Shown piece after piece: positions 38,190-43,935 of a stretch of DNA of 56,058 bases. The stretch is from positions 1-56,058 of the forward strand of contig JAFGOM010000023.1 of the NCBI GenBank assembly GCA_016926505.1. Direction: 5' to 3'. The position numbers and the translations under genes were made by a program. Numbering within the stretch: the stretch's first letter is position 1; the number at the start of each line of letters is the position of its first letter. Origin of the DNA: Methanospirillaceae archaeon. GTDB taxonomy: Archaea; Halobacteriota; Methanomicrobia; Methanomicrobiales; Methanospirillaceae. The notes under the pieces were generated by a model. The model was given only the letters and a program-made list of their open reading frames with translations, had not been told where the DNA came from and searched no databases.

Positions 38190-39302
38190 TTATCTGATAA
38201 TCTCCATAAACCGGGATGCTATCTTTTGGGCAGGAAACGGGATATCAGAAACCTTGGTATTGCCGGGTTTGAGAAGTACATGGATAAAGGATGGTCCTTC
38301 TCCCTTCTCATGAAGGGCCACTTTCAGTTCAGTTTCATTCCGGACCTTTCTGGTTCTCGTAAGGCCAGCACCGATTGCAAGCAGTTCAAGATCACTCCTG
38401 TTCCATGCAGCAGTCATCTGCCCGCCGGTGCTGCCAAATGCTCCGTTGTCAAGTGCAACGATCGTGAGGTTGGAAGGGGATTCTGATGCAACGGTGGGAA
38501 GAATCGCAGTTCCAAGCAGGCTGCCGTCACCGTCAAGAACAATGACGTCCCGTTCCTGCCCGAGAGCAAGTCCAAGCCCGATGGGTGTCGCCTGTGTGTA
38601 ACTGCCAAGCATGTAAAAGTTCTCCGGCCGATCTCGTACGGCATACAACTCCTTTGAGGGGACGCCGATATTTGCCACCACCAGCTCACCGGTCAGTTCC
38701 TGTGCAACGACCCTGATAGCTTCTCCCCGTATCATCTCCGGTTCGACGATCTCTCTATGATATGCAAGAGAGACCTGGCGTGCCCGTGAAGGAAATGCAG
38801 GATCGCTCCCGCTGTCAGTACTCTGTTCCCAGAATTGCGGTGATATAAGGATGACATGGATCTCGGATCTCTCAAATGACTGTACAACCGCGTTTCGTAT
38901 CTGTTCCGGGGAGCCATCGGCAACAATGGTACAGGATATGCCGGTTGCCTGTAAAATATCAGGTATTTTCTGGTTAAAGGGGATCTGTGCCGGTATCTTC
39001 TCCTGGTATACTCCTCTCCAGCTCGCAAGAATGGGAAGGGGCAGGTGGTATAACGCGGTTAAGGTAAGCAGGGCGTTTAAGGAGTTGCCCAGTCCTGAGC
39101 TCTGCATCTGCAATACTGCCCTCTGGCCGGAGAGGGCAAGCCCTGCACAGAGACCAACCCCGTCCTCCTCCCGGTTGACCGTAATATAGGTAAAATCCTC
39201 TTGTAAGACAGAGCAGAGGTTCTTCGTCCTGTCACAGGGAAGGGAGACAACGTAATTGACTGACTCTTCTGCAAGAATTCGCGATACTTCTCTCTCAATC
39301 AT
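38190..39302 (-). CDS. comDE: Sulfopyruvate decarboxylase, fused alpha and beta subunits (ComDE)
   Basis: The 370-residue thiamine diphosphate enzyme decarboxylates sulfopyruvate to sulfoacetaldehyde in CoM synthesis. The N-terminal half matches ComD (pyrimidine-binding domain, VNREEDGVGLCAGLALSGQR near residue 50 with the cofactor-activating Glu, then QSSGLGNSLNAL). The C-terminal half matches ComE (pyrophosphate-binding domain with VLDGDGSLLG and DNGAFGSTGGQMT). Some methanogens encode these as two genes; here they are fused. Start ATG 39302 overlaps the cysteate synthase stop as ATGA; the longer frame to 39335 would overlap more and is unneeded. It is the last gene of the six-gene operon. 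Confidence 0.92.
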   Translation of the reverse strand: MIEREVSRILAEESVNYVVSLPCDRTKNLCSVLQEDFTYITVNREEDGVGLCAGLALSGQRAVLQMQSSGLGNSLNALLTLTALYHLPLPILASWRGVYQEKIPAQIPFNQKIPDILQATGISCTIVADGSPEQIRNAVVQSFERSEIHVILISPQFWEQSTDSGSDPAFPSRARQVSLAYHREIVEPEMIRGEAIRVVAQELTGELVVANIGVPSKELYAVRDRPENFYMLGSYTQATPIGLGLALGQERDVIVLDGDGSLLGTAILPTVASESPSNLTIVALDNGAFGSTGGQMTAAWNRSDLELLAIGAGLTRTRKVRNETELKVALHEKGEGPSFIHVLLKPGNTKVSDIPFPAQKIASRFMEIIR

Positions 39303-40570
39303 CTGGCATCCATCCATTGCCGTATCTGTGTACATACCTGTTTTACCGATTCTTCTTTTCCGATATGGGCTCCTGGCTCTACCGGCAGGAGATGGTAGTC
39401 TTCTCTCACCCTCTGGTACCCGCCACCGGTGATGTGCAGAAGGATGGTCTCGTCGCGGTCTGCCTCTCCTGCACGAACAGCCTGCATGAGGGAGGCAACG
39501 CAGACTGCAGCGGCAGGATCCAGGTCAATCCCCTCGTGTCTGGTAAAATACGCCCCTGCTTTTTTTGCCTCGTCATTGGTGATTGCATTCATCTTTCCCC
39601 GGGTGGCAGAAAGAGCATCAAAGACCCCTCCGCAGATACTGTACGGCGGGTTCCGGTTTGTAAGAACCGGTGCAGATACCTTTCCCGTGGCATTCTCTGC
39701 ATCAGGCATGTCGGTATCAGGGATTATTTCCCGTCTCCCTGCATGGTATGCCGAGACCATCGGGATAAAGGGGATATTCTGCGAGAGATACAGGCGGGGA
39801 AGCGTTGTACCAAACCTCCCGTCCCGGATCAGGCGTTGTGCCATCTCCCAGGCAGCAATGCCCCCTGTTCCGCTTCCCACGGCCTGGAAATACCAGTCAG
39901 GCAGCGACCCGATAACCGATACCGCATCAAGCATCGCAGTCCCCATTCCGTCACGACGTGCCGGATTTTTTGCTCCACCTTCCGGGATGACACCCTCCAT
40001 TTCGCAGATCCGGTTACCGGCAGCAATGGCATCCGAATAATCCCCGTCAACGGTGACAAGAAAGACATTATCGGTCTCTTTTGTTGTCCAGATACTTGCT
40101 ACTGCAGATGACGGAACCGTGATTATCACCGGAATTCCTGAATATGCCGAGACCTGGGCAAATGCACGCCCGGTATTACCTGCTGATGCGACAAGGAGAA
40201 TTGAGTTCGTACATTCGAGACGTCTCTGCATGGTCGGAAGTGCTTCGAGTTCCTTAAACGAGCAGGTTACCAGGTTTGCCTGTCTTTCAGGCCAGTATCC
40301 TGAGAAACAGATGTACAGATTCGATAATCCCAGTTCCGGGCCCAGATTTTCGCTACGGTAGGTCACCGGTCCGGCATCGGTTAAAACGGTCCCGTGACAG
40401 CAGAGCCAGTCAGTGAACCGGAACATCCCTGCATGTTTTTTCTGAATAACAAACCGCTTCTCCTGATACTGTGGCTGCAGGAGCCCGAAGCATCCGTTCG
40501 GACACTCATTGGTATACTGATCCGGTACTGTGGCTTTGCAGACCGGACATTGCAGGATATACTCTCCCAT
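39299..40570 (-). CDS. Cysteate synthase (threonine synthase-like PLP enzyme)
   Basis: The 423-residue enzyme resembles threonine synthase but sits beside comDE, as do the cysteate synthases of Methanosarcinales and Methanomicrobiales, which convert O-phosphoserine and sulfite to cysteate. It has an N-terminal Cys zinc-ribbon-like part (CPVCKATVPDQYTNECPNGC), the probable PLP lysine in TCSFKELEALP near residue 105, the phosphate-binding SAGNTGRAFAQ loop and the GSGTGGIAAWE loop. The ATG at 40570 is preceded by AGGTGA at ideal spacing, better than the GTG at 40579. Transamination of cysteate then gives sulfopyruvate, the ComDE substrate; no aminotransferase is in the window. Distinguishing cysteate from threonine synthase rests on context. 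Confidence 0.88.
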   Translation of the reverse strand: MGEYILQCPVCKATVPDQYTNECPNGCFGLLQPQYQEKRFVIQKKHAGMFRFTDWLCCHGTVLTDAGPVTYRSENLGPELGLSNLYICFSGYWPERQANLVTCSFKELEALPTMQRRLECTNSILLVASAGNTGRAFAQVSAYSGIPVIITVPSSAVASIWTTKETDNVFLVTVDGDYSDAIAAGNRICEMEGVIPEGGAKNPARRDGMGTAMLDAVSVIGSLPDWYFQAVGSGTGGIAAWEMAQRLIRDGRFGTTLPRLYLSQNIPFIPMVSAYHAGRREIIPDTDMPDAENATGKVSAPVLTNRNPPYSICGGVFDALSATRGKMNAITNDEAKKAGAYFTRHEGIDLDPAAAVCVASLMQAVRAGEADRDETILLHITGGGYQRVREDYHLLPVEPGAHIGKEESVKQVCTQIRQWMDAR

Positions 40571-40579
40571 TCTTTTCAC

Positions 40580-41812
40580 CTATATCTGGATCTGAAATGT
40601 TCCGCAAAGAATGCGGTTCTTCAGGTCAGCACTTATTCTTTCTCCTCTCCTCCGGTCTGACTGCCGGAGTATAATCGGGGTCTCTCTCCCAAGAACCGGT
40701 ATCGATCCCATATTCATCGTGTATACTTTTCCCGGACAGACACGGGTGCAGGTCCCACAGGATACGCAGTGCGTCGGATCAATAGGGTGACCGGAGACGA
40801 TGGCACCGGTCGGGCAGGATTGTTCTGCCAGGCACGGGGTACACAAGATGCAGGCATCATGCTCCTCAAAAACGGTAAGGGAGGTTCCCTGCCATACCCG
40901 ACTATACCGGGTCATATCAACCTGGCTGCGATCGATGAGATCCACCACCGGCAGGGGAATATCTTCGTCAAGGATGAGAAGGTTTGCGAGGGCATCCTCG
41001 TCAGTAACAGGGATTGCAGCCCCGACTGATACGAGACATTCAGGACCTGCAGAGGTGATAAAACCGCCCATGTACTCAGGGTCCATCCCAAAAAAATCTG
41101 CAGATAATGCAAGGTTTGGTCGTGCCCGGCTGCTCCGGGTTCCGCACCCGAGAACCAGTCCCGGTGCACCGTTCACAAGAACCGGTGTACCGGTATGGAT
41201 AAACCGCATATCCGGATCATTTGCAAGGGGATTTATCTCTCCGCATCCGCTCACGGTAGCCCCGTCTGCGTTACCCGGAAAGGGGATGACAGAAAATATC
41301 GTAACCTGTTCTTTGTCTTTTTGATTGACAAAGGCAGAGTAGTTACAAAAGGCACTTCGCGTGGTACAGAGCCGGGCATAGGGTATCTCGTGCCCTGAAA
41401 TGGTTGCCTCGTACCGCTTTCCTTTCGATTCTGCCTCGATCTGCAACTCCGAGCCCCCGGCAATATCCCGAAACAGGTGGCCGCCACCGTACCGGGGGGA
41501 TGCACGGGCGGTACCATACACAATACAGTCCACAATCCCCAGCCCTTCGTTCGGGCAGGGACCGGGGAATGCCGGGACACCGTTTATGGTGATTGCATCA
41601 GCTCTTTTAAAAACACCGGGCTCTGCAACCGGAATCGTCAGGACTGCACAGGTCCCCGACATCACCCCGCAGGTACCGCAGGTGACGACATCGATCTCTT
41701 CCACGGTAGGGATATCGTCTCTCCTGACCCTGTCTTTTAATTCACCTGCCGTGCAGACCGTGGCGATGCCGTCAGCAATTGATCGGGCAATCTCCGGGAT
41801 CGTCTTTTTCAT
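40580..41812 (-). CDS. DUF39 protein with C-terminal 2[4Fe-4S] ferredoxin (methanogenesis marker 16)
   Basis: The 410-residue protein has a DUF39 domain (about 1-320) with conserved cysteines in VTCGTCGVMSGTCAVL and PGPCPNEGLGIVDC, and a C-terminal ferredoxin domain: CILCTPCLAEQSCP and CVSCGTCTRVCP, giving two cubane sites. DUF39 proteins make homocysteine from aspartate semialdehyde and sulfide in anaerobes, a reductive thiolation of an aldehyde. Sulfoacetaldehyde, made by the next two gene products, is an analogous aldehyde, so this protein is a strong candidate for the last step to CoM. The start ATG overlaps the Fe-S protein stop (ATGA). The assignment as the terminal enzyme is inference from chemistry and operon. 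Confidence 0.88.
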   Translation of the reverse strand: MKKTIPEIARSIADGIATVCTAGELKDRVRRDDIPTVEEIDVVTCGTCGVMSGTCAVLTIPVAEPGVFKRADAITINGVPAFPGPCPNEGLGIVDCIVYGTARASPRYGGGHLFRDIAGGSELQIEAESKGKRYEATISGHEIPYARLCTTRSAFCNYSAFVNQKDKEQVTIFSVIPFPGNADGATVSGCGEINPLANDPDMRFIHTGTPVLVNGAPGLVLGCGTRSSRARPNLALSADFFGMDPEYMGGFITSAGPECLVSVGAAIPVTDEDALANLLILDEDIPLPVVDLIDRSQVDMTRYSRVWQGTSLTVFEEHDACILCTPCLAEQSCPTGAIVSGHPIDPTHCVSCGTCTRVCPGKVYTMNMGSIPVLGRETPIILRQSDRRRGERISADLKNRILCGTFQIQI

Positions 41813-42486
41813 ATTCTGATATCCTCTACCCTGACGACCATCCCGGCTTTTGTCTGAATTACCATGTTCACAACGCCGGTATGGGAGAGATCCATCATGC
41901 AGTATCCCGGCAGAAAACGCTGTCTTCTCCCGAATTCAGGGGGATTTTTGATCGTCTGTGCTATCCCCTCAAACCCGATGACATGGTATGCCCTGATATC
42001 CTTGACAGCAGCGGGATTATTTCGTGCTATCATCGGAGATACGACGTGGCAGGTTACAAGACCGGTTATCAGGTCTGATGACAGGACTGAGAGGACATGC
42101 TGTACCGGGCACCCGGCACCCATGGGTCTGCCAAGGAGCGTGTCACCCGCACCGATATCCATCCTTTCCACCATGTCAGGCCGAAACGGCAGGATGATCT
42201 TTCGTGCTGACGGCTCTCCTGCAAAGGGATCAATGATAAAATCATAGTGATTGCCTATGATATCGATGCCGGTATATCGGACAGTAGATCGTGGATCACA
42301 CTTCTCTTCGGGTTTTCCGGTCTGCCCGTGATAGTAAGGGCAGTCTTTCTCCTCTTTTTCCCCCTCCTGTACCCGTCTGACAAAGGTCTCACAATCCGGT
42401 GCCCCGCAGAGCCCGCAGTCATGCCCCGGGGGGGTCCACTCCTCTTTCGTATCAGTCACCCCTGAATGAAAAATCAGGATTGTCAA
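41809..42486 (-). CDS. Fe-S cluster-binding protein of the CoM operon
   Basis: The protein (up to 225 residues) has an N-terminal FeS domain of the type found in corrinoid Fe-S proteins: CGLCGAPDCETF, followed by DCPYY, four cysteines for one [4Fe-4S] cluster. The rest is a beta-rich domain with the conserved block LLGRPMGAGCPVQHVL near residue 112, CHVVSP and the C-terminal GYCMMDLSHTG. Best start is uncertain: TTG at 42486 or GTG at 42459, both inside the end of the GTPase gene, so translation is coupled. It ends overlapping the DUF39 gene. A likely role is electron delivery or cluster transfer to the DUF39-ferredoxin. The family is methanogen-associated but uncharacterised as far as I know. 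Confidence 0.8.
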   Translation of the reverse strand: MTILIFHSGVTDTKEEWTPPGHDCGLCGAPDCETFVRRVQEGEKEEKDCPYYHGQTGKPEEKCDPRSTVRYTGIDIIGNHYDFIIDPFAGEPSARKIILPFRPDMVERMDIGAGDTLLGRPMGAGCPVQHVLSVLSSDLITGLVTCHVVSPMIARNNPAAVKDIRAYHVIGFEGIAQTIKNPPEFGRRQRFLPGYCMMDLSHTGVVNMVIQTKAGMVVRVEDIRI

Positions 42487-43159
42487 GGGAACGGATCATG
42501 CCGAAGTGATTCTGCCATCCGATCTCCCGCTTCCCGACACAGATGGTGCAGACTCCCAAAGGCGGGGCACCCAGAAGGGTGATAGAACCGGGATCCTGTA
42601 CCGGTTCCTGGTTTTCTATTGCACGGAAGAGATACCGAAGTCCTGTTCCCTGGATGGCATTGGTCTCGATGATATCAAGGCTGTTGTTGACTTCACAGAT
42701 TCTCTCCCGAAACACCTCTTTTTCAGCCTGTGAGATGAGATCGGTATGGGTCACAACGGCAATATCAGAAAGACCGAGCATGGCACTCATCTTAAAAGGG
42801 GTATGGATCCCGGCGATGGCACTGACAACAACGATCCCGAGAGACTGGGTGAGGAACGGTGAGCAACGCAGGCATAATCCTGCACTCTCAACAATGAGGA
42901 TATCTGCTTTTTCCTGCTCTGCCCAGGTTATTGCATCAGAGAGAACAAGGATGCCGACATGATCGGGACAGACATCCCCGGAATACACCTTTTTTGTAGG
43001 GATGTGAAACTCTTCTGCCAGTTCAATATCCTCAAATGCCCGAACAACATCAATTTTCAGGTAACAGATCCGGGTATCCGGGAGATACTGCTTGATAATC
43101 TGCCGTGCAACCGTGGTCTTTCCTGCCGAGGGAGGCCCGGCAATGATAAGAAGTTTCAT
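42452..43159 (-). CDS. HypB/UreG-like P-loop GTPase with two CxxC motifs
   Basis: From ATG 43159 (ATGA overlap with the ABC gene stop) the protein is 235 residues. Its P-loop is GPPSAGKTT near residue 8. Switch-like Asp and Glu follow in LKIDVVRAFEDIE and ADILIVESAG, and the specificity motif is VVTHTDL, the SIMIBI-class pattern of HypB/UreG metallochaperones. Unusual are two CxxC motifs: GLCLRCSPFL near residue 95 and GVCTICVGKRE near 210, suited to binding a metal. The gene is second in the CoM operon. I infer a metallocofactor-insertion or cluster-maturation role for a partner in the operon; nickel or iron cannot be told apart. Confidence 0.82.
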   Translation of the reverse strand: MKLLIIAGPPSAGKTTVARQIIKQYLPDTRICYLKIDVVRAFEDIELAEEFHIPTKKVYSGDVCPDHVGILVLSDAITWAEQEKADILIVESAGLCLRCSPFLTQSLGIVVVSAIAGIHTPFKMSAMLGLSDIAVVTHTDLISQAEKEVFRERICEVNNSLDIIETNAIQGTGLRYLFRAIENQEPVQDPGSITLLGAPPLGVCTICVGKREIGWQNHFGMIRSLDNPDFSFRGD

Positions 43160-43935
43160 CCGCAACTGACACTCCGGATGAGTTCACCTGCCCGGATCAT
43201 CTCACGCATCTGGCACAGGGTCTCATCTGTCCTGGTAACCCAGGCAATGGCTTCTCTCTCTTCATCTCCCGGCTCGAGGATCCTGTCCACCCCTCCGTTC
43301 TTCATGACGATCCTCCGGCCCGAAAGGAGTGAGATCAGGGGGTCATGGGTTACAAAGATCAGGGATTTCCTGTGATTCTTTAAACACGAGATCACTTTTT
43401 CCTTGAAAATTCCGGCATTCTCAACTTCATCAAGGAGGACGATGGGTGCATCTGATATCAGGATGGCATCAGCGATCATAAGAGACCGGGTCTGACCCCC
43501 GGAAAGTGAGGTCATCCGGGCCGAGGCGGTTATCTTTTCACCGGTAAACTCGTTTGCAAGGATGATGGTCCGGTTGATAACGCCGGTCTCATCCATCTTT
43601 CGTGATCTGACGTGCATTCCTAAAAATTCCTGCACCGTGAGATCTGAGAGGCATTTGGTATTCTGGGTGATTAAAGCAACCGGCTTTTGTGCAGGGTTCC
43701 TGATGAAATGCTCGGGTGGATATGTTCCGTTTACAAGAATCGTTCTTTTCGTGACGGTATCATGGTGTGCAAACATCTCAATATCAGAGATAAAAGCGCT
43801 TTTACCCGAACCCGTGGGTCCGACGATCGAGAGGGTATCGCCAGGAGAGATTACAATCCTGTCAAATCCTTCCGGTTTCCCGTCCCGGGTTATTCCGGGA
43901 AGGATGGTTATCTCTACGATCTCCTGGAGTTGCAT
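43156..43935 (-). CDS. Stand-alone ABC-type ATPase of the CoM operon
   Basis: The 259-residue protein, from ATG 43935, has Walker A GPTGSGKSAF, signature LSGGQTRSLMIADAIL, Walker B APIVLLDEVENAGIF and H-loop FVTHDPLISLL. The D-loop position reads VENAGI rather than the common SGLD. No permease or binding protein is nearby, and the other operon members are soluble, so it is probably a soluble ATPase rather than a transporter part, akin to SufC or to AtwA-type activation ATPases in principle. It is the first gene of the operon and the start lies about 60 bases after a TATA-like box. An alternative TTG lies upstream at 43956. Confidence 0.82.
   Translation of the reverse strand: MQLQEIVEITILPGITRDGKPEGFDRIVISPGDTLSIVGPTGSGKSAFISDIEMFAHHDTVTKRTILVNGTYPPEHFIRNPAQKPVALITQNTKCLSDLTVQEFLGMHVRSRKMDETGVINRTIILANEFTGEKITASARMTSLSGGQTRSLMIADAILISDAPIVLLDEVENAGIFKEKVISCLKNHRKSLIFVTHDPLISLLSGRRIVMKNGGVDRILEPGDEEREAIAWVTRTDETLCQMREMIRAGELIRSVSCG

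What the first reader, a model, noticed from the sequence alone, without database searches (positions are those of the whole stretch)
38190..43935. Six-gene coenzyme M operon with four uncharacterised leading genes
Five of the six genes are coupled by ATGA or longer overlaps, and cysteate synthase follows the DUF39 gene by nine bases with an AGGTGA site in between. The order ABC-type ATPase, CxxC GTPase, Fe-S protein, DUF39-ferredoxin, cysteate synthase, ComDE puts known CoM enzymes at the end and four proteins of uncertain role at the front. Established: cysteate synthase and ComDE lead to sulfoacetaldehyde. Inferred: the front four genes carry out or mature the thiolation of sulfoacetaldehyde to CoM, including ATP- and GTP-driven assembly or activation of a metal cluster.
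Basis: partly seen in the sequence, partly recalled or inferred. Interest (0 to 1): 0.82.

Follow-up and report, generated by a model that had tools for sequence, protein, structure and literature searches.

The report
Coenzyme M operon with sulfite-linked trio
A methanogen's six-gene coenzyme M operon holds three already-characterised enzyme types plus an ATPase-GTPase-iron-sulfur trio of unknown function; the trio recurs across archaea and bacteria beside or alongside enzymes that consume sulfite, so it probably supplies sulfite rather than adding coenzyme M's thiol, though no experiment has tested this.

Summary
The operon is real. Six minus-strand genes (43935-38190) follow one another through four overlapping junctions and one 9-nt gap, and the order is conserved in Methanomicrobiales. 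Three genes are settled: cysteate synthase (CS), ComDE and the DUF39-ferredoxin protein. The last is methanogenesis marker 16 (MMP16/ComF), which Chadwick et al. 2025 (PMC12068725) showed to be the primary coenzyme M synthase of Methanosarcina acetivorans. So three genes, not four, lack a function. The same paper notes that this ATPase, GTPase and COG2000 Fe-S trio often sits beside CoM genes, role unknown.

New here: the trio is not a thiolation accessory specific to MMP16. It is absent from all 8 MMP16-positive, CS-negative genomes tested. It is kept with CS-ComDE in Methanoregula genomes that lack MMP16. It occurs in 45 genomes (44 bacterial, one Asgard), none with a detected MMP16. It tracks sulfite-consuming C-S synthases: CS in Halobacteriota (35 of 36 trio genomes versus 16 of 43), where linkage apparently arose twice, and ComA in Bacillota (14/15 versus 44/134), including a comA-comB-trio cluster. 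Best reading: the trio supplies sulfite, whose source for CoM is an open question. Fe-S or metal assembly remains a serious rival; about half of the 45 genomes have no detected sulfite user.

The parts
43156..43935 (-). Trio gene 1: stand-alone ABC-type ATPase (no permease in the operon); Walker A GPTGSGKS, signature LSGGQ
   Evidence: PF00005 E=4e-14, no curated NCBIfam family reached; orthologs aligned in A3
42452..43159 (-). Trio gene 2: HypB/UreG-like P-loop GTPase with invariant CPDH, AGLCLRC and C-terminal CxxC plus His218
   Evidence: PF02492 over cut-off; best sequence and fold matches HypB and UreG; C64, H67, C96, C99, C204, C207 conserved in 126 sequences, H218 in 100/100 trio and Q in 26/26 paralogs
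41809..42459 (-). Trio gene 3: COG2000-type Fe-S protein (label from PMC12068725); N-terminal CFeSP-type [4Fe-4S] domain (C15, C18, C23, C40) plus a beta-rich domain with invariant C117, H121, C187, H193
   Evidence: PF04060; AF2 pLDDT 90.6; N-domain matches CFeSP, 0.7 A over 34 residues, remainder without a confident PDB match; Cys/His invariant in 47 sequences
40580..41812 (-). MMP16 / ComF, coenzyme M synthase (HcyBio/COG1900 domain plus ferredoxin domain)
   Evidence: TIGR03287 E=1e-153, 511 bits, over cut-off; function shown for the M. acetivorans ortholog in PMC12068725
39299..40570 (-). Cysteate synthase (O-phosphoserine + sulfite)
   Evidence: TIGR03844 E=2e-179, 597 bits, over cut-off; ATG 9 nt after the MMP16 stop
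38190..39302 (-). Fused sulfopyruvate decarboxylase ComDE; ATGA overlap with CS (longer in-frame starts up to 39335 are possible)
   Evidence: TIGR03845 and TIGR03846 over cut-off

Best explanation
This is a coenzyme M biosynthesis operon. Established by family membership and published work: CS makes cysteate from phosphoserine and sulfite; an aminotransferase encoded elsewhere gives sulfopyruvate; ComDE gives sulfoacetaldehyde; MMP16/ComF gives CoM. Inferred: the ATPase-GTPase-Fe-S trio acts on the sulfonate side of the pathway and supplies sulfite, made anaerobically from sulfide or a persulfide, to the C-S synthase (CS here, ComA in bacteria). Proposed mechanism, the weakest part: the HypB-like GTPase and the stand-alone ABC ATPase load or energise a metal site on the Fe-S protein. 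That protein carries a CFeSP-type [4Fe-4S] domain and a 2Cys/2His set, and would be the redox component acting on sulfur. In some bacteria and in Methanocella-like archaea a NifS-type cysteine desulfurase encoded inside the cluster would provide the sulfur.
For: Trio versus CS over 79 Halobacteriota genomes: 35/1/16/27, p=9e-9; at genus level 18/0/12/17, p=2e-5; given CS, MMP16 adds nothing (data). Trio and CS are adjacent in two deeply separated trio lineages: Methanomicrobiales and, with a different gene order, Methanosarcinaceae/Methanotrichaceae-type genomes (CS-ABC-GTPase-FeS). Methanoregula (G046, G157) keeps trio-CS-ComDE with no MMP16 detected. In Bacillota ComA is present in 14/15 trio genomes versus 44/134 others, with a ComA-ComB-36 bp-trio cluster (L129) and ComA directly upstream of the trio in L127. 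In Bacteroidota ComA is in 9/11 trio genomes versus 74/295, and one of the two exceptions has CS. Single-locus neighbours fit: a UDP-sulfoquinovose-synthase-like gene (below cut-off), APS kinase-CysD-CysN, a TauE/SafE-family exporter. CS and ComA share sulfite as co-substrate. The source of sulfite for CoM is stated to be unclear in PMC6286981.
Against: Nothing here shows chemistry, and oxidising sulfide to sulfite with low-potential acceptors is energetically awkward. 23 of 45 trio-bearing bacterial/Asgard genomes (Omnitrophota, Gallionellaceae, Acidobacteria and others) have neither ComA nor CS, and an SQD1-like gene was found in only 2 genomes. 16 of 51 CS+ genomes lack the trio, so another sulfite source must exist. 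Halobacteriota with MMP16 but no CS also lack the trio, and the three of these tested have ComA, so the ComA link does not hold there. A few loci carry the trio beside MMP16 without CS (L045, L111, L113). Counts are not corrected for shared ancestry beyond a genus-level test, and some genomes are incomplete MAGs. The NifS, Rrf2 and HydE neighbours fit cofactor assembly equally well.
Confidence: 0.45

Rival explanations
1. The trio is a general Fe-S or metal-cofactor assembly module, analogous to SufC plus HypB-type chaperones, whose association with CS and ComA reflects lifestyle or operon hitch-hiking rather than sulfite.
For: A NifS-type cysteine desulfurase lies inside the cluster in 17 bacterial loci and in G009, an Rrf2 regulator (IscR/CymR-like) upstream in several, HydE inside two clusters; trio-NifS lies near a SufBD-core gene in L181; the GTPase fold is HypB/UreG; a paralogous ABC-GTPase pair works with an SBP_bac_6 protein.
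Against: CS and ComA are not Fe-S enzymes (PLP- and Mg-dependent, from general knowledge), yet they are the partners the trio tracks; independent re-linkage to CS; comA-comB-trio cluster.
Confidence: 0.27
2. One reading: the trio matures, reduces or feeds sulfur to MMP16/ComF in the final thiolation of sulfoacetaldehyde.
For: Directly upstream of MMP16 in Methanomicrobiales; within that order the trio tracks MMP16 (20/20 versus 2/13); L045, L111 and L113 carry trio plus MMP16 without CS nearby.
Against: 0 of 8 MMP16+ CS- genomes have it; Methanoregula keeps it without MMP16; no MMP16 in 45 trio-bearing bacterial/Asgard genomes; Methanosarcina MMP16 works without a trio; MJ1681 works in E. coli (cited in PMC12068725).
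Confidence: 0.13
3. The trio senses or detoxifies sulfite, or channels it to the C-S synthase, without making it.
For: The same sulfite-linked distribution; a TauE/SafE-family exporter gene directly upstream in L155.
Against: Two NTPases plus two conserved metal-ligand sets are costly for sensing; the NifS inside the cluster suggests sulfur input.
Confidence: 0.1

Closest known systems
CoM loci of Methanosarcina and other methanogens (Chadwick et al. 2025, PMC12068725)
   Same: CS, ComDE and MMP16/ComF; the paper notes ATPase, 'Ni2+ binding GTPase' and COG2000 genes colocalising, role unknown
   Different: Here all six genes form one tightly spaced operon; Methanosarcina-type genomes in this sample have CS, ComDE and MMP16 but no trio
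HypB/UreG nickel-insertion GTPases
   Same: Fold, P-loop, a Cys/His motif placed like the HypB metal site
   Different: Extra invariant C99, C204, C207 and H218; the G4 motif is TxxD rather than NKxD; constant ABC ATPase gene partner; HypB equivalog score 52 bits against a cut-off of 121
CFeSP large subunit (AcsC/CdhE) [4Fe-4S] domain
   Same: N-terminal four-cysteine domain, 0.7 A over 34 residues
   Different: No corrinoid-binding region; a beta-rich C-terminal domain with an invariant 2Cys/2His set and no confident PDB match
SUF/SMS (SufC-SufB) Fe-S assembly
   Same: Soluble ABC-type ATPase, sometimes with a cysteine desulfurase gene
   Different: No SufB/SufD in the trio; a GTPase and an Fe-S protein instead
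Reverse sulfite reductase (alSir) as sulfite source for CoM (proposal cited in PMC6286981)
   Same: Proposed to supply sulfite for CoM biosynthesis
   Different: Siroheme enzyme family; trio proteins show no similarity to it in Pfam or NCBIfam scans

Membership tests
MMP16 / ComF coenzyme M synthase | Full-length match to TIGR03287 over curated cut-off, with ferredoxin domain | tested here: met
   511 bits against 364; Fer4 near 343-362
MMP16 / ComF coenzyme M synthase | CoM-dependent growth of a deletion mutant | not testable with these tools
   Shown for the M. acetivorans ortholog in PMC12068725, not for this organism
Cysteate synthase | TIGR03844 over cut-off (separates it from threonine synthase) | tested here: met
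   597 bits against 325
Sulfopyruvate decarboxylase ComDE | Alpha and beta domains over cut-off | tested here: met
   194 bits against 148; 231 against 222
HypB nickel-incorporation protein | Curated HypB equivalog score | tested here: not met
   TIGR00073 52 bits against 121
HypB/UreG-like GTPase superfamily (PF02492) | Fold, P-loop and Cys/His metal motif | tested here: met
   PF02492 43 bits against 20.7; Foldseek top hits HypB and UreG; C64/H67 and C96 aligned to HypB
HypB/UreG-like GTPase superfamily (PF02492) | GTP specificity motif NKxD | tested here: not met
   T137 and D140 fixed in all 100 trio proteins, never NKxD; position 138 is K or R in nearly all, H in the window
ABC transporter importer/exporter | Associated permease in the operon | tested here: not met
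   No permease in the six-gene operon; none recurrent beside bacterial trios
SUF-type Fe-S assembly | SufB/SufD scaffold in the same unit | tested here: not met
   None in the operon; near, not within, one cluster only (L181)
Sulfite-forming enzyme (proposed) | Sulfite production in vitro | not testable with these tools
   Association data only

The most novel reading that the evidence does not exclude
The ABC ATPase, HypB-like GTPase and COG2000 Fe-S protein form a previously unrecognised, nucleotide-driven anaerobic system that oxidises sulfide or persulfide sulfur to sulfite, feeding sulfonate biosynthesis (CoM in methanogens, sulfolactate in bacteria) in both domains.
Probability: 0.25. 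Interest if true: 0.87.

Novelty: new variant of a known kind. Interest (0 to 1): 0.62.

Why it matters
Coenzyme M is essential for biological methane formation. Its sulfonate comes from sulfite, yet how methanogens in sulfidic, reducing media obtain sulfite is stated to be unclear (PMC6286981). If the trio supplies it, a long-open step becomes testable by deletion plus sulfite or cysteate rescue, and one unnamed gene module would link methanogen CoM biosynthesis with sulfonate biosynthesis in heliobacteria, Peptococcaceae-type Bacillota and Bacteroidota. If instead the trio is a cofactor-assembly machine, it is still an undescribed one, spread over many phyla, with invariant metal ligands.

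Tried and rejected
MMP16-specific role of the trio: weakened by the profile data. Sulfoquinovose synthase as a general partner: only 2 of 51 genomes searched had a close homolog. L-ASST (COG1900) as the bacterial partner: PF01837 was found in about a quarter of bacterial trio genomes. Neighbour clustering in bacteria gave only NifS, Crp/Fnr and Rrf2 as recurrent partners; a Pfam scan of 101 neighbours brought out ComA, ComB and TauE. Fold search of the Fe-S protein gave no confident match beyond its N-terminal domain. GTPase paralogs scoring 190-253 bits are a separate ABC-GTPase-SBP_bac_6 system not tied to ComA in Bacteroidota (0 of 17) and were excluded from the trio counts. Paper searches found no study of the trio other than the remark in PMC12068725.

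Full report
OBSERVATION. Best gene limits: ABC ATPase 43935-43156, GTPase 43159-42452, Fe-S protein 42459-41809 (GTG start), MMP16 41812-40580, cysteate synthase (CS) 40570-39299, ComDE 39302-38190. Junctions: ATGA, GTGACTGA, ATGA, a 9-nt gap with AGGTGA across the stop, ATGA. Curated models give MMP16 (TIGR03287), CS (TIGR03844) and both ComDE domains over cut-off.

WHAT WAS ALREADY KNOWN. The DUF39-ferredoxin protein is methanogenesis marker 16. Chadwick et al. 2025 (PMC12068725) deleted MA3297 (CS), MA3298 (comDE) and MA3299 (MMP16) in Methanosarcina acetivorans and concluded that MMP16 is the primary CoM synthase, ComF; they cite White 2019 for activity of the M. jannaschii protein in E. 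coli. Their Fig. [quoted passage not shown] So the colocalisation is not new; the open part is the trio's role.

THE TRIO IN HALOBACTERIOTA. MMP16, the Fe-S protein and CS were profiled over whole genomes. In the window's order the trio and CoM genes are gained or lost together (trio versus CS 21/1/0/11; trio versus MMP16 20/2/0/11). Over 79 genomes the trio follows CS (35/1/16/27, p=9e-9). Among MMP16+ genomes it is confined to those with CS (33 of 48 versus 0 of 8, p=3e-4); among CS+ genomes MMP16 makes no difference (p=1). Two Methanoregula-type genomes (G046; G157 = SKADARSKE-2, complete) keep trio-CS-ComDE with no MMP16 detected. Sixteen CS+ genomes, including those identified as Methanosarcina-like by locus layout, have no trio, so the trio is not indispensable for CoM. 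G151 has a trio but no CS.

TWO INDEPENDENT LINKAGES. In Methanomicrobiales the order is ABC-GTPase-FeS-MMP16-CS-ComDE. In families f8 and f21 it is CS-ABC-GTPase-FeS, followed in f8 by ComD-ComE. In a GTPase tree these two sets fall in separate clades; the f8/f21 set groups with the paralogous GTPases at 100/100. The root is a midpoint and the tool warns of long branches, so 'arose twice' is the likely rather than the certain reading.

BEYOND METHANOGENS. A scan of 84,980 species genomes with the GTPase profile found hundreds of matches; the best 80 include Heliobacterium, Heliophilum, Pelotomaculum, Omnitrophota, Bacteroidales, Gallionellaceae, Acidobacteriota and a Freyarchaeote, nearly all with ABC and Fe-S genes next to the GTPase. 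Across 45 of these genomes (44 bacterial, one Asgard) no MMP16-type protein was detected (PF01837 matches were of the L-ASST score class) and CS occurs in one. In 17 loci a NifS-type cysteine desulfurase lies between GTPase and Fe-S genes; Rrf2 or Crp/Fnr regulators lie upstream in others, and HydE in two. Several contigs are MAG fragments and a few labels look like binning errors (L109, L112, L124).

SULFITE LINK. Among 101 neighbour proteins, Pfam showed ComA, ComB and TauE/SafE. L129 reads ComA-ComB-36 bp-ABC-GTPase-FeS; L127 reads ComA-about 120 bp-ABC-GTPase-FeS; L135 has ComA about 5 kb downstream. Over 149 Bacillota-phylum genomes, ComA is in 14/15 trio genomes and 44/134 others (p=7e-6). 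For Bacteroidota the trio set came from the GTPase-selected loci (9/11 with ComA) and the background from an even draw (74/295; p=2e-4), so the two samples differ in origin. ComA joins sulfite to PEP; CS joins sulfite to phosphoserine; sulfite is what they share. Of the 45 genomes, 22 have ComA or CS and 23 have neither, which the sulfite model does not explain. [quoted passage not shown]

ANATOMY. The GTPase has a HypB/UreG fold, but its C-terminal tail (199-235), which bears C204/C207/H218, is modelled with low confidence. C64/H67 and C96 align with the HypB metal site (read by eye). Six Cys/His positions are shared by 126 trio and paralog proteins; H218 separates trio (His) from paralogs (Gln). 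The Fe-S protein combines a CFeSP-type [4Fe-4S] domain with a beta-rich domain holding C117/H121/C187/H193, invariant in 47 sequences; a metal site there is inference. Paralogous ABC-GTPase pairs occur with SBP_bac_6/DUF1858 proteins, which suggests that the two NTPases are a reusable unit acting on different third partners.

INTERPRETATION. Adjacency and co-occurrence place the trio with sulfite users better than with MMP16. The step from 'associated with sulfite users' to 'makes sulfite' is inference; sensing, channelling or cofactor assembly would leave much the same pattern. Phylogenetic non-independence is only partly addressed (genus-level test, two trio clades). The sulfite model is held at 0.45, cofactor assembly at 0.27, the thiolation model at 0.13, sensing or channelling at 0.10.

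Noticed in passing
L232-L241, L271-L287: Paralogous ABC-HypB-like GTPase pair with an SBP_bac_6 protein (sometimes DUF1858-fused) in Bacillota and Bacteroidota; in Bacteroidota none of 17 such genomes has ComA. Function unknown.
   Followed up: partly
L173 (G046), L114 (G157): Methanoregula genomes with trio-CS-ComDE but no MMP16 detected; only an L-ASST-type COG1900 protein is seen, which may replace it.
   Followed up: partly
L181:5568-11703: Methanocella-like genome G009: ABC-GTPase-NifS-FeS cluster near a SufBD-core gene and a second cysteine desulfurase.
   Followed up: partly
L159, L164: HydE-family radical SAM gene between NifS and the Fe-S gene of the bacterial trio; the L159 protein was tested and is over the curated HydE cut-off.
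   Followed up: no
L045, L111, L113: Trio next to an MMP16 gene without CS nearby; in G093 this is a second MMP16 copy. Possibly a mobile trio-MMP16 cassette.
   Followed up: no
L109, L112, L124: Contigs labelled Nanohalarchaeota, Nitrospirae and Bacilli carry methanogen-like CoM operons; probably binning errors.
   Followed up: no
window 42740-42751: The window's GTPase has THTD at the G4 position, where nearly all relatives have TKxD or TRxD.
   Followed up: partly
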